This document shows positions 34,438 to 40,387 of a stretch of DNA of 53,990 bases, in pieces (position 1 is the stretch's first letter; each line of letters starts with the position of its first letter). The notes beneath the pieces are model-generated. The model ran no database searches. It was not told where the DNA came from and worked only from the letters and a program-made list of their open reading frames with translations. The translations under genes were made by a program, and so were the position numbers. The stretch is from Chelativorans xinjiangensis (lineage in GTDB: Bacteria > Pseudomonadota > Alphaproteobacteria > Rhizobiales > Rhizobiaceae). The stretch is taken from positions 1 through 53,990 of the forward strand of contig NZ_WQNH01000033.1 in the NCBI RefSeq assembly GCF_009812055.1, given 5' to 3'.

Positions 34438-34552
34438 TGGAGTGAGTAGAGAGTAGTGAGATAGTGAGTAGTGAAGTCTTCGCTACTCGCTACTCGCTAC
34501 TCGCTACTCGCTACTCGCTACTCACTATTCACTACTCGCTACTCACTCACCC
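34438..34552. mobile_element. Heptamer inverted-repeat element R1 (no ORF)
   Basis: Left arm is GTGAGTA-type heptamers (34442-34476 region). The right arm begins about 34480: about six units of CGCTACT, then CACTATT, CACTACT, CGCTACT, CACTCAC. Centre GTAGTGAAG-t-CTTCGCTAC folds back. The element fills the entire gap from the ppiB stop to the queA start. The variant TATT heptamer is shared with R2 and R3, so these are copies of one element, not independent microsatellites. Confidence 0.8.
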
Positions 34553-35629
34553 ATGCGTGTCGACCTCTTCGACTTCGAGCTGCCGGAAGACCGGATCGCG
34601 CTGAGGCCCGTAAGCCCGCGCGATTCCGCGCGGCTGCTCGTGGTGCGGCCGGACGAGGCTCTCGAAGACCGCATCGTGCGCGACCTGCCGCAGCTCTTGC
34701 GGGCGGGCGATGCGCTGGTCTTCAACGACACCAAGGTGATCCCCGCGCGGCTCTCTGGCCTGCGAAGGCGCGGCGAGGCCGTGGCGCATGTCGAGGCGAC
34801 GCTGCACATGCGCACCGGCCCCGACCGCTGGAAGGCGTTTTTGAAGCCGGCCAAGCGGGTGGCGGTGGGCGAGCGCATCCAGTTCGGCCATGACGGCGAA
34901 AGCTGTTTTCTGGGAACGCTCGAAGCGAGCGTTGCCGAGAAAGGCGAGGGCGGCGAGGCGCTGCTGGTCTTCGACCTCTCCGGCCCCGTGCTCGACGAGG
35001 CGATTGCCGCTGCCGGTCATATGCCGCTGCCGCCCTATATCGCCTCGAAGCGGCCGGACGACGAGCGCGACCAGGCGGACTACCAGACCATCTATGCCCG
35101 GGAGGAGGGGGCCGTCGCAGCCCCTACCGCCGGCCTCCACTTCACGCCCGGACTGTTCGCCGCACTCGATGCTGCCGGCATCGAGCGCCATTTCGTGACG
35201 CTGCATGTGGGCGCCGGCACTTTCCTGCCCGTCAAGGCGGACGACACGGCGGCGCACAAGATGCACGCGGAGCGGGGCGAGGTGGATGCCGGGACCGCCG
35301 AAGCCCTCAACGCCGTGCGGGCGCGGGGCGGGCGCATCGTCTCGGTCGGCACGACGTCGCTCAGGCTCCTCGAAAGCGCGGCGATGGGGAGCGGCGAGAT
35401 TGCCGCCTGGTCCGGTAAGACCGATATCTTCATCGTGCCCGGCTACCGGTTCCGCGCCGTCGACGCCCTGATGACCAATTTCCACCTGCCGCGCTCGACG
35501 CTCTTCATGCTGGTCTCGGCCTTCAGCGGGCTTGAGGCGATGAAAGAGGCCTACCGCCACGCCATCGAACGCGGCTATCGTTTTTACTCCTATGGCGATG
35601 CCTGCCTGCTTTTCAGGAAGGAGGAATGA
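34553..35629 (+). CDS. queA: S-adenosylmethionine:tRNA ribosyltransferase-isomerase
   Basis: A 358-residue enzyme converting preQ1-tRNA to epoxyqueuosine-tRNA using SAM as ribosyl donor. [20 protein letters not shown] opens as in the family. Further blocks are [39 protein letters not shown] [17 protein letters not shown] and [17 protein letters not shown]. Full length. It starts right after element R1. Its stop region overlaps the next small gene, followed by tgt, so the queuosine genes are one operon. Confidence 0.97.
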
Positions 35630-35631
35630 CG

Positions 35632-35901
35632 ATGGACGACGACCTTGCGACCATGGACCGCGATGCGCTGATCGCCGAAGTCAAGAAGCTGCGTGCCGCC
35701 ATCCGCGAGCACCGCGACGCGACGGGCCATGCCCTGTGCTGGCACCATCCCGCCATGTGGGCCCTGCTGCCGGAGAAGACCGCGCCGTCGATCGCCGTGC
35801 CGCCGTGGCCGAAATTCCTGCGCGGCTGTATCCGCTACCGCAGCTCGCTCGACGAGCAGGCGGCGGGCGCGCCGGTCCACGACAAGGAATACGATGACTG
35901 A
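35632..35901 (+). CDS. Conserved hypothetical protein between queA and tgt
   Basis: An 89-residue protein. A helical N-terminus ([20 protein letters not shown]) is followed by a Trp/Pro/His-rich segment ([20 protein letters not shown], then [19 protein letters not shown]). ATG 35632 is preferred because GGAAGGAGGA lies about six bases upstream; ATG 35626 overlaps the queA stop. Its end overlaps tgt by eight bases. Tight coupling inside a queuosine operon hints at a linked role, but no domain is recognised. Confidence 0.75.
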
Positions 35902-38825: not shown

Positions 38826-39324
38826 GAGAGTGAGTAGTGAGTAGTGAGTAGTGAGTAGTGAGTAGTGAGTAGTGAGTAGGGGGAAGTGGGTGGGGGTCGA
38901 GGCTGGAACAAGTAGGGCGGTCAACTCATACCGGGACTTGCTCGTATGGAGGGCGGCTATGGAACTTGCCTTGAGCTGCTACACGGCAACCAAGAACTTC
39001 CCAAGCAGTGAGATCTATGGGCTGACAAGCCAGATAAGACGTTCATCTTCGTCGATACCGGCCAATATCGCCGAGGGATATGGTAGAGAGCATAGAGGTT
39101 CATTCGTTCAGTTCCTTCGTATCTCCCAAGGATCCCTCAAGGAGTTGGAGACACATGTCATTTTGTCAGGAAAGTTGGAATTTCTTGAGCGACCCGGTGT
39201 CGAAAATCTCCTCGCGCAAGCCGAGGAAGTTGGCAAGATGCTACGCGCGATGATCCGCAGTCTGCAGCGGAAACAGTAGAATGGCTGTAAATCCCTACTC
39301 TCTACTCACTATTCACTACTCACT
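38826..39324. mobile_element. Heptamer inverted-repeat element R2 carrying a four-helix-bundle gene
   Basis: Left arm: seven perfect GTGAGTA units (38830-38878), beginning four bases after the ATP-grasp stop codon. Right arm: CTACTCT, CTACTCA, CTATTCA, CTACTCA (39295-39322), the reverse complement of the left unit type. Between them lies a lower-GC ORF (38890-39279). A second TGA occurs just past the right arm (39324-39326). Removing the element leaves TGA plus about 18 bases before the alpha-E ATG, a normal operon gap. Confidence 0.85.
38890..39279 (+). CDS. Four-helix-bundle protein (23S rRNA intervening-sequence type)
   Basis: About 129 residues from GTG 38890, which has AGGGGG from the last repeat unit as ribosome site; GTG 38872 inside the repeat is an alternative. 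Core: SYRDLLVWRAAMELALSCYT, then YGLTSQIRRSSSSIPANIAE, GYGREHRGSFVQFLRISQGS and LKELETHV, the full S23/IVP signature. Relatives occur in 23S rRNA intervening sequences and resemble Avd of diversity-generating retroelements. GC is clearly lower than neighbours. It lies between inverted heptamer arms, so it is probably cargo of, or required by, that element. Confidence 0.9.
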   Translation: MGVEAGTSRAVNSYRDLLVWRAAMELALSCYTATKNFPSSEIYGLTSQIRRSSSSIPANIAEGYGREHRGSFVQFLRISQGSLKELETHVILSGKLEFLERPGVENLLAQAEEVGKMLRAMIRSLQRKQ

Positions 39325-39344
39325 GAGTGGCGGAGCCACGTAAC

Positions 39345-40283
39345 ATGCTTCTGGGGCGCGCGGCCAACGGCCTTTACTGGATGCACCGCTATATCGAGCG
39401 GGCGGAGAATATGGCCCGTCTCGTCGATACCGGCCATCGCCTTGCCTTGACGCAGACGAGCGCGGCGTCGGACGAATGGATATCGGTGCTCACCAGCGCC
39501 GGCGCGCGCGAGGCTTTCGAACAAGAGGAGCGGCCCCACGATACGGCGAGCGTGACGGATTTCCTTCTGCGCGACCTCTCGAACCCGTCCAGCGTGATGT
39601 CCTCCATGGAGACCGCCCGCACGAACGCGCGCATGGTGCGCACGGCGCTGACGCGCGAGACCTGGGAGAGCATCAACGAGGCCTGGATGGCGCTCCGCCG
39701 CATGCTCATGCGGCCCGTCGACGAGCGGGACCTGCCGGCCGTGCTCGACGCCATCAAGCGCGAGACCGCGCTCATCCGCGGCGCCTTCCACGGCACCATG
39801 CTGCGCAACGAGATATTCGATTTCGCCCAACTCGGGACGCTGATCGAACGCGCCGACAACACTGCGCGCATCCTCGACGTCAAATATTACGTGCTCTTGC
39901 CTTCGGTCGCATGGGTCGGCTCGCCGCTCGACAATCACCAGTGGCAGACCATCCTGCGTTCGGTCTCCGCCCAGCGCTCCTACCGCTGGATCTACGAAGG
40001 CTACGAGCCCACCAGCATCGCCGACTATCTCATCCTCAACCGCCGCATGCCGCGCTCGCTTGCCTTCTGCTACCGCGGCATCTGCGACGCGCTGGAATTC
40101 CTGGCCGAGGAATACGGCGCCCGGCATCAAAGCCACGACATGGCCGCCGCGAAGCGGGAAAAGCTGCGCTCCGCTTCCGTCTCCGATATTTTCGAGGAGG
40201 GACTGCACGAATTCCTGAAAGATTTCATTCGTGACAACGGCGCGCTGGGCGATCAGATTGCCGCGGACTATCGGTTTTATTGA
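39345..40283 (+). CDS. Alpha-E domain protein
   Basis: A 312-residue all-helical protein: MLLGRAANGLYWMHRYIERA at the start, SVMSSMETARTNARMVRTAL and FDFAQLGTLIERADNTARIL in the body, RAYR-like NRRMPRSLAFCYRGICDALE near the end. The alpha-E domain always travels with circularly permuted ATP-grasp proteins and is thought to act with them. ATG 39345 is preferred to GTG 39327. Its stop TGA (40281-40283) is followed directly by element R3. Confidence 0.92.
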   Translation: MLLGRAANGLYWMHRYIERAENMARLVDTGHRLALTQTSAASDEWISVLTSAGAREAFEQEERPHDTASVTDFLLRDLSNPSSVMSSMETARTNARMVRTALTRETWESINEAWMALRRMLMRPVDERDLPAVLDAIKRETALIRGAFHGTMLRNEIFDFAQLGTLIERADNTARILDVKYYVLLPSVAWVGSPLDNHQWQTILRSVSAQRSYRWIYEGYEPTSIADYLILNRRMPRSLAFCYRGICDALEFLAEEYGARHQSHDMAAAKREKLRSASVSDIFEEGLHEFLKDFIRDNGALGDQIAADYRFY

Positions 40284-40387
40284 GTGAGTAGGGAATAGTG
40301 AGTAGAGGGTAGTTATGAACGGAAAGTCTTTGAATTTGAACCAGTTTCCTGGGGTGTTCACTACTCACTACTCACTACTCACTACTA
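40284..40387. mobile_element. Heptamer inverted-repeat element R3 (no ORF)
   Basis: Left arm GTGAGTA-GGGAATA-GTGAGTA-GAGGGTA (40284-40311). Right arm is about four CACTACT units (40358-40386). A 45-base unique centre lies between. The left arm matches the reverse complement of the R2 right arm at 28 of 31 positions, including the GAATA variant, so R3 appears inverted relative to R2. A TGA occurs again just past the right arm (40390-40392). Removal leaves a 9-base gap between the alpha-E stop and the transglutaminase start. Confidence 0.8.

What the first reader, a model, noticed from the sequence alone, without database searches (positions are those of the whole stretch)
34438..40387. Three inverted heptamer-repeat elements at TGA stop codons, one carrying a four-helix-bundle gene
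Seen: GTGAGTA-type arrays facing CTACTCA-type arrays at 34438-34552 (R1), 38826-39324 (R2) and 40284-40387 (R3). Each starts 0-5 bases after a TGA stop and runs to just before the next gene. R2 encloses a lower-GC four-helix-bundle ORF. The R3 left arm equals the reverse complement of the R2 right arm at 28 of 31 bases, and R1 shares the same variant TATT/AATA heptamer. A second TGA lies just past the right arms of R2 and R3. Deleting R2 or R3 restores 18- and 9-base operon gaps. Known: S23/IVP proteins occur in 23S rRNA intervening sequences and resemble Avd. Inference: a mobile element that inserts at stop codons, perhaps with TGA duplication, with the four-helix-bundle protein as its mobility factor and R1/R3 as non-autonomous copies.
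Basis: partly seen in the sequence, partly recalled or inferred. Interest (0 to 1): 0.88.

Follow-up and report, generated by a model that had tools for sequence, protein, structure and literature searches.

The report
Four-helix protein with matching repeat hairpins
A small bacterial protein of unknown function sits between two mirror-image runs of a 7-letter DNA word, the same word is scattered as hairpins around the genome, and in related bacteria the word and the protein's sequence change together, which suggests that the protein reads the word and gives this long-unexplained protein family a testable role.

Summary
R1-R3 are three of about 22 inverted GTGARTA-array hairpins in this genome, and R2 holds its only PF05635 (23S-IVP, four-helix bundle) gene. 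The link is general: of 77 such genes from 23 named phyla, 63 lie between inverted arms, against 5 of 69 control windows; period is 7 or 8 in 57 of 58. In viral contigs it is 24 of 29. Arrays elsewhere in a genome use the unit of that genome's own IVP arms (0 of 5,000 permutations as good). IVP residue 78, near the helix 2-3 loop, tracks unit base 2 in 118 of 121 classifiable loci (rule refined after inspection).
R3 looks like an insertion. R2's site is an old IVP seat (21 of 97 loci); one relative keeps a gene-less remnant, another an empty site. TGA duplication is not general, and spacers share no core. Best reading: a nuclease-free protein-repeat pair, comparable to REP/RAYT, of which 23S rRNA IVS may be a special case. 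How arms spread is unknown.

The parts
34442..34470 (+). R1 left arm, GTGAGTA-type array
34484..34546 (-). R1 right arm, nine TACTCGC/TACTCAC/TATTCAC units (R1 spacer 34471-34483)
   Evidence: present with fewer units in G248 and degenerate in G251
38830..38878 (+). R2 left arm, seven GTGAGTA units
38872..39279 (+). IVP / four-helix bundle gene inside R2 (PF05635, TIGR02436; start codon uncertain); the only one found in the genome
39079..39105 (+). codons 70-78 (Y70, R75, F78), end of helix 2 to start of helix 3: residues that track the arm unit
39296..39323 (-). R2 right arm, TACTCTC TACTCAC TATTCAC TACTCAC
40284..40311 (+). R3 left arm, four units (GTGAGTA GGGAATA GTGAGTA GAGGGTA)
40358..40389 (-). 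R3 right arm, last unit degenerate (spacer about 40312-40357)
   Evidence: junction empty in six relatives
37365..38825 (+). circularly permuted ATP-grasp gene, left neighbour of R2 (host gene)
39345..40283 (+). alpha-E gene between R2 and R3 (host gene)
   Evidence: the ORF listing gives a start at 39327

Best explanation
R2 is a complete IVP element: a gene for a small four-helix-bundle protein bracketed by inverted tandem arrays of a 7-bp unit that the protein most likely binds. R1, R3 and about 19 other hairpins in the genome are gene-less members that share the unit. Shown: association across phyla, unit matching within genomes, covariation of protein and unit, presence/absence differences, a likely gene-less remnant at the R2 site in a relative, and one inverted spacer. 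Inferred: the protein reads the unit through the helix 2-3 loop, on single-stranded or hairpin nucleic acid, perhaps as a pentamer like Avd (pentamer recalled), one subunit per repeat. Inferred and weaker: binding lets arms be copied, converted or moved by host replication and repair enzymes, so that IVP and its arms persist as a nearly neutral resident at the ends of genes. The GTGA-type strand has stops in all three frames and the hairpin is symmetrical, so an insertion just after a stop codon is tolerated in either orientation. In an operon transcript the arms would form an RNase III-type stem around the IVP gene, as in 23S rRNA IVS.
For: Arms: 63 of 77 IVP loci have an inverted-arm score of at least 12 (direct 9 of 77) against 5 of 69 displaced windows; strong periodicity in 58, of period 7 (38), 8 (19) or 9 (1), periods 5-11 tested (the loci are the best 80 of 540 relatives, 3 dropped for short flanks). 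Viral contigs: 24 of 29 distinct loci against 0 of 24. Family: 76 of 91 examined IVP loci have arrays on both sides, 71 inverted, 0 direct (12 of 103 rows left out). Cognate unit: arrays outside the IVP locus match the unit of the genome's IVP arms; log score 81.9, best of 5,000 shuffles 54.3 (73 of 80 IVP genomes). Co-occurrence: arrays outside the IVP locus in 56 of 80 IVP genomes and 17 of 167 others (p 1.7e-21; in 7 IVP genomes, 2 of them with arrays, the IVP locus could not be subtracted); genera 34/11/7/57 (p 4e-12); within genera z 3.6. At the S1 site the unit follows the protein (Mantel r 0.55, 0 of 2,000) but hardly the flanking genes (r 0.10, 76 of 2,000). Residue code: F/Y78 in 47 of 47 of the derivation set; 118 of 121 loci for the refined rule. 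Insertion and loss: vs G248 16 of 22 sites occupied, 4 empty, 2 unclear; vs G251 12, 7, 3. Spacer inversion at E19 (score 68 inverted, 25 forward, null maximum 33). Remnant at the R2 site in G251.
Against: No binding was measured. The residue code was refined after seeing the held-out loci; 34 of 109 loci outside the derivation set have units it does not cover; and protein trees of 89-105 columns give few supported independent changes (3 pairs on starred branches, on average 2.4 in the same direction, 0 opposite, sign test not significant). Spacers of different loci are no more alike than shuffles in own genome and G248 (19 and 48 of 60 shuffles as high; G251 1 of 60), so whole-element transposition has not left a shared interior. 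17 family genomes have arrays without an IVP gene, and G248 and G251 keep arrays without IVP. IVP genes in the family sit at 8 sites only, more like long residence or homing than free movement. 24 of 80 IVP genomes showed none of the four tested units outside the IVP locus (other units not tested). Non-cognate genomes also have some arrays (23 of 62, 13 of 63, 13 of 66, 18 of 62). 8 of 146 random stretches in the same loci pass the periodicity score, all of period 7 or 8, so such arrays also occur away from IVP genes.
Confidence: 0.74

Rival explanations
1. RNA device: the arrays are intercistronic or 3'-end hairpins that protect, process or uncouple mRNAs; IVP is a domesticated RNA-binding regulator of them, kept near its own target, and copies spread by ordinary recombination.
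For: Strong RNA hairpins; residence between operon genes, such as a junction I read as nuoC-nuoD in 44 of 97 loci; 44 of 44 and 21 of 21 IVP genes in one orientation at S1 and S3; the Coxiella IVS has heptamers and was processed by RNase III in vitro (PMC4990558, passages).
Against: IVP presence is patchy (8 of 16 genus genomes); empty sites occur at 4 of 22 and 7 of 22 sites in two relatives; these relatives keep arrays without IVP; nothing here ties specific host genes to a conserved regulatory role.
Confidence: 0.3
2. One reading: an autonomous transposon that inserts at stop codons with TGA duplication, IVP being its transposition factor.
For: R3 absent from six relatives; second TGA beyond R2 and R3; arms often abut stop codons.
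Against: R2 site is old; no doubled TGA by eye at the empty sites of E01, E02, E10, E11, E18; no catalytic profile match; no shared interior among copies. Closeness to stops is partly automatic, because the arm itself carries stops in all three frames.
Confidence: 0.15
3. Ordinary slippage-grown simple repeats; the IVP gene lies among them by chance or as a passenger.
For: Unit numbers vary between strains; arms built of two unit types exist (L367, L370).
Against: Inverted arms at 63 of 77 IVP loci, in 20 named phyla, almost only periods 7 and 8, unit matching within genomes, and covariation with the protein.
Confidence: 0.04

Closest known systems
REP / REPIN elements with RAYT (TnpA-REP) proteins
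   Same: One resident protein gene flanked by inverted copies of a short sequence that is dispersed as hairpin doublets through the genome, with lineage-specific sequence types (family features recalled; listing and abstract starts only).
   Different: RAYT is an HUH-type single-strand nuclease (recalled); no nuclease profile matches IVP. REPs are 20-40 bp palindromes; here the arms are tandem 7/8-bp units around an unrelated, fast-changing spacer.
23S rRNA intervening sequences (IVS) with S23p/IVP ORF, e.g. Coxiella
   Same: Same protein family, complementary ends around the ORF, about 0.4 kb; the Coxiella IVS has tandem GACAGAT heptamers before the ORF (PMC4990558, passages).
   Different: Here the element lies between protein genes, has dispersed gene-less relatives and a unit that covaries with the protein. 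None of the 20 IVP loci scanned with Rfam (most of them without clear arms) showed rRNA.
Avd of diversity-generating retroelements
   Same: Same fold (4dwl, TM 0.85-0.90 by target) and weak profile match.
   Different: No reverse transcriptase or template repeat among the neighbours scanned; scores lie below the Avd families' cut-offs (26.1 against 40 bits, 20.6 against 80).
Heptamer arrays of Xanthomonas (GGGAATC), Nostoc (GGGGA[CT]T) and Beggiatoaceae (TAACTGA)
   Same: Intergenic heptamer arrays, 70 convergent pairs in X. campestris (PMC4692102, passages; PMC4679880, passages).
   Different: Neither text contains the words four helix. The best structural match to our IVP, 2gsc/XCC0516, is from X. 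campestris, which makes a prediction.

Membership tests
PF05635 / TIGR02436 four-helix bundle (IVP) | profile match above curated cut-off and four-helix fold | tested here: met
   126 bits against cut-off 33.8; 123.8 against 24; model helices 24-40, 45-70, 75-101, 107-133, match to 2gsc
23S rRNA IVS | lies inside 23S rRNA | tested here: not met
   R2 lies between ATP-grasp and alpha-E genes; no rRNA hit in window 33500-41500
23S rRNA IVS | complementary ends forming a stem around an IVP ORF | tested here: met
23S rRNA IVS | RNase III excision without religation | not testable with these tools
   needs RNA mapping
REP/RAYT | HUH-type transposase encoded near the repeats | tested here: not met
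   the gene inside R2 matches only IVP/Avd-type profiles and NCBI hypothetical subfamilies; the genome was not searched for RAYT genes
REP/RAYT | protein gene flanked by the same repeat that is dispersed in the genome | tested here: met
MITE | copies share interior and terminal sequence | tested here: not met
   arms shared, spacers of own genome and G248 no more alike than shuffles; G251 borderline, 1 of 60
MITE / IS | target-site duplication | tested here: inconclusive
   TGA on both sides at R2 and R3; none seen by eye at five other empty sites
Diversity-generating retroelement | reverse transcriptase and template/variable repeats next to Avd | tested here: not met
   the five neighbours scanned are host genes; DivGenRetAVD 20.6 bits against cut-off 80

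The most novel reading that the evidence does not exclude
IVP/S23 proteins are the sequence-specific readers of a previously unrecognised class of genetic element found across bacterial phyla and in one archaeal draft record: nuclease-free elements made of inverted arrays of a 7- or 8-nt word. The helix 2-3 loop forms a readable amino-acid-to-base code, the interior can flip, and gene-less copies populate gene ends. The 23S rRNA IVS and the orphan heptamer arrays of Xanthomonas, Nostoc and Beggiatoaceae are cases of the same thing.
Probability: 0.5. Interest if true: 0.93.

Novelty: new variant of a known kind. Interest (0 to 1): 0.83.

Why it matters
IVP proteins occur in many phyla and are annotated only as four helix bundle or S23 protein; a paper of which I saw passages calls the function and origin of IVS elements unclear (PMC4990558). 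A cognate repeat and a candidate recognition code make their biochemistry directly testable. The link could also explain orphan heptamer arrays already in print, and why IVP genes turn up inside operons, for example between cas10 and cmr3 on a cyanobacterial plasmid. A small four-helix protein that reads a 7-nt word would interest both the mobile-element and the nucleic-acid-recognition fields.

Tried and rejected
Rfam: no family explains R1-R3; the only weak hit (mir-197, 28.7 bits against gathering score 74) is taken as chance. Shared core among short elements: not found. TGA duplication as a general signature: not supported. GC3-based guess of gene orientation around the elements: wrong for R1 and R2, not used. 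The first form of the residue rule (GA unit gives F78) failed in 31 of 57 held-out loci; CA gives Y78 held in 26 of 26. The refined rule (G at unit base 2: Y78; T or C: F78) is post hoc: 72 of 75 classifiable of 109 loci outside the derivation set. At least six named loci lie on contigs of the same length as unnamed family loci, so these sets overlap. Two of the 47 derivation rows (L320, L339) have an internal stop. Phage records: no IVP match. Plasmids: 45 records, mostly cyanobacteria; 8 loci opened: inverted arms clear in 5 (two of them the same element on two Calothrix plasmids), weaker in L356, and an array scored upstream only in L353 and L354. The two Calothrix plasmids share the neighbouring genes too, so they do not show a jump. 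Literature: ten searches listed no paper that I could see links this protein family with flanking heptamer arms, beyond the Coxiella case; only listings, abstract starts and passages were seen, and only open PMC papers are held.
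Full report
Observation. The three inverted heptamer arrays are present as described, directly after TGA stops and up to the next gene. R2 encloses a gene of the IVP / four-helix-bundle family (PF05635, 126 bits; TIGR02436). 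In the 5.69 Mb genome the 21-mer pattern matches 108 times within 3 mismatches and its backward control 0 times. The matches form about 22 hairpins, a GTGARTA-type array facing a TAYTCAC-type array, 13 to about 65 bases apart except in R2 (some arms are degenerate). The genome has one IVP gene, the one in R2.

A general rule. I fetched relatives of the protein with flanks from a species-wide collection (the best 80 of 540, so close relatives are over-represented). Tandem arrays beside the gene have period 7 or 8 and hardly any other: of 58 loci with strong periodicity, 38 have period 7, 19 period 8 and 1 period 9 (periods 5-11 tested). Upstream and downstream arrays are reverse complements: 63 of 77 loci pass an inverted-arm score that 5 of 69 displaced windows pass and 3 of 146 random stretches pass; the direct score passes in 9 of 77. 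The 77 loci come from 23 named phyla, and arms were found in 20 of them, including one archaeal draft record. In viral contigs 24 of 29 distinct loci have arms against 0 of 24 controls. Of eight cyanobacterial plasmid loci opened, five have clear inverted arms (two being the same element), L356 is weaker, and L353 and L354 have a scored array upstream only. In the window's own family (247 genomes, one draw) 80 have an IVP gene. Of 91 loci examined (12 of 103 rows left out, most of them partial), 76 have arrays on both sides, 71 of them inverted and 0 direct. The sequence of the unit differs widely between loci.

Protein and repeat go together. Arrays of four tested units occur in 40, 33, 25 and 35 of the 247 genomes (backward controls 0, except 1-2 matches in three genomes). 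Outside the IVP locus itself, 56 of 80 IVP genomes but 17 of 167 others have arrays (the IVP locus could not be subtracted in 7 of the 80). The link holds by genus (34/11/7/57) and within genera (z 3.6). The unit is also the right one: genomes whose IVP arms use a unit have dispersed arrays of that unit in 9 of 11, 10 of 10, 7 of 7 and 7 of 11 cases for the four units, against 23 of 62, 13 of 63, 13 of 66 and 18 of 62 other IVP genomes, and the overall match beats all 5,000 permutations.

A candidate recognition code. In 47 heptamer IVPs of the family, residue 78 is Y in all 15 with GGCAGT[AC] arms and F in all 32 with GTGA or GCGA arms; H70 goes with GCGAATA in 13 of 13, with one further H70 elsewhere (two of the 47 have an internal stop). 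Residues 70, 75 and 78 lie at the end of helix 2 (45-70) and the start of helix 3 (75-101) of the predicted structure (pLDDT 89). Outside the derivation set a simple form of the rule failed in part. A refined form (G at unit base 2: Y78; T or C: F78) fits 72 of 75 classifiable loci of 109, and 118 of 121 with the derivation set. It was refined after inspection, it leaves 34 of 109 loci unclassified, and the sets overlap. On trees built without the motif columns the class changes 10 times and the residue 8 times (shuffled class 38.7), but only 3 independent pairs lie on well-supported branches, too few for a significant sign test. At one site the unit follows the protein (Mantel r 0.55) and hardly the flanking genes (r 0.10); at S3 the figures are 0.40 and 0.14, at S2 0.18 and 0.25, so S2 does not show it.

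History of the elements. Family IVP genes sit at only 8 sites (97 loci): 44 at a junction I read as nuoC-nuoD, 25 at a glnA-like 3' end (mostly octamer units), 21 at the ATP-grasp/alpha-E junction that holds R2 (own included), 3 next to an mmsB-like gene (also the place of the window genome's gene-less E03, as I read it), and 4 single sites. The gene names nuoC, nuoD, glnA and mmsB are my reading of the translations, not a family search. The same site bears different units in different genera. IVP trees follow the site (92 rows, 10 changes, shuffled 43.9). So R2 is not a fresh insertion. In relative G251 the R2 site holds a gene-less hairpin whose interior resembles the last bases of the IVP gene and its trailer (score 32; 1 of 2,000 shuffles as high; 84 comparisons of other spacers reach at most 27). 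In G248 the site is clean. R3, in contrast, is absent from the six relatives where the site could be read. Over 22 own elements, G248 has 16 occupied, 4 empty and 2 unclear; G251 has 12, 7 and 3 (occupied means at least one heptamer on each strand between the flanks; three of the seven empty G251 sites hold 118-262 bases of other sequence). G248 and G251 have no IVP gene.

Fast, invertible interiors. Between own genome and G248 flanks are 88-100% identical, while nine spacers judged homologous range from 61 to 100% with gaps counted. At E19 the spacer is inverted (score 68 inverted, 25 forward, null maximum 33); E06, E13 and E01 hint at the same. One of 25 IVP genes at the glnA-like site is inverted (L334). 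Spacers of different loci are no more alike than shuffles in own genome and G248 (G251: 1 of 60 as high), so either whole copies moved long ago and the interiors decayed, or the arms are installed without an interior.

Mechanism. The evidence supports a recognition pair: protein and unit. No catalytic profile matches IVP; its fold is that of Avd, the accessory protein of retroelements (4dwl). I infer that it binds the array as hairpin or single strand and that host enzymes do the DNA steps; whether the gain is mobility, homing or RNA processing is open. Stops in all frames of the GTGA strand and the symmetry of the hairpin explain why gene ends tolerate it.

Known or new. Coxiella IVS heptamers (PMC4990558), Xanthomonas and Nostoc heptamers (PMC4692102) and Beggiatoaceae TAACTGA arrays (PMC4679880, which names a repeat-binding protein as a possible mobile element) are in print; I saw passages of each. 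A legend of PMC10910872 lists IVP among CRISPR-associated candidates (one passage); an IVP gene between cas10 and cmr3 may show why. None of the ten searches listed a paper that I could see makes the general link. I file R2 as a PF05635 member and as IVS-like in architecture, not as an IVS (not in rRNA), REP/RAYT (no HUH nuclease found) or MITE (no shared interior).

Noticed in passing
window 37037-37253: A 76-nt inverted repeat (88% complementary) of the ATCTCCCCCGCGAGGGG type, unrelated to the heptamers; a similar sequence fills the E07 site in G251 (L272).
   Followed up: no
L356 1198-1554 (Picosynechococcus plasmid): An IVP gene with weak octamer arms sits between cas10 and cmr3 of a type III-B CRISPR operon.
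   Followed up: partly
L351 1204-1572 (Nostoc edaphicum plasmid): IVP element with AGTAGGG arms lies between ribonucleotide reductase beta and alpha genes, antisense to both.
   Followed up: partly
L367, L370 (G235): Arms built from two unit types (GCGAATA or GCGAATG blocks beside GTGAGTA blocks), as if one unit were replacing another.
   Followed up: no
L334 (G155) at the glnA-like site: IVP gene inverted relative to the other 24 loci at that site; locus at a contig start, so it needs checking.
   Followed up: no
L268 (G251, E03 site): Instead of a heptamer hairpin, about 260 bp of other sequence including a GGTCAAGCCCGAGGATGACGG-type repeat.
   Followed up: no
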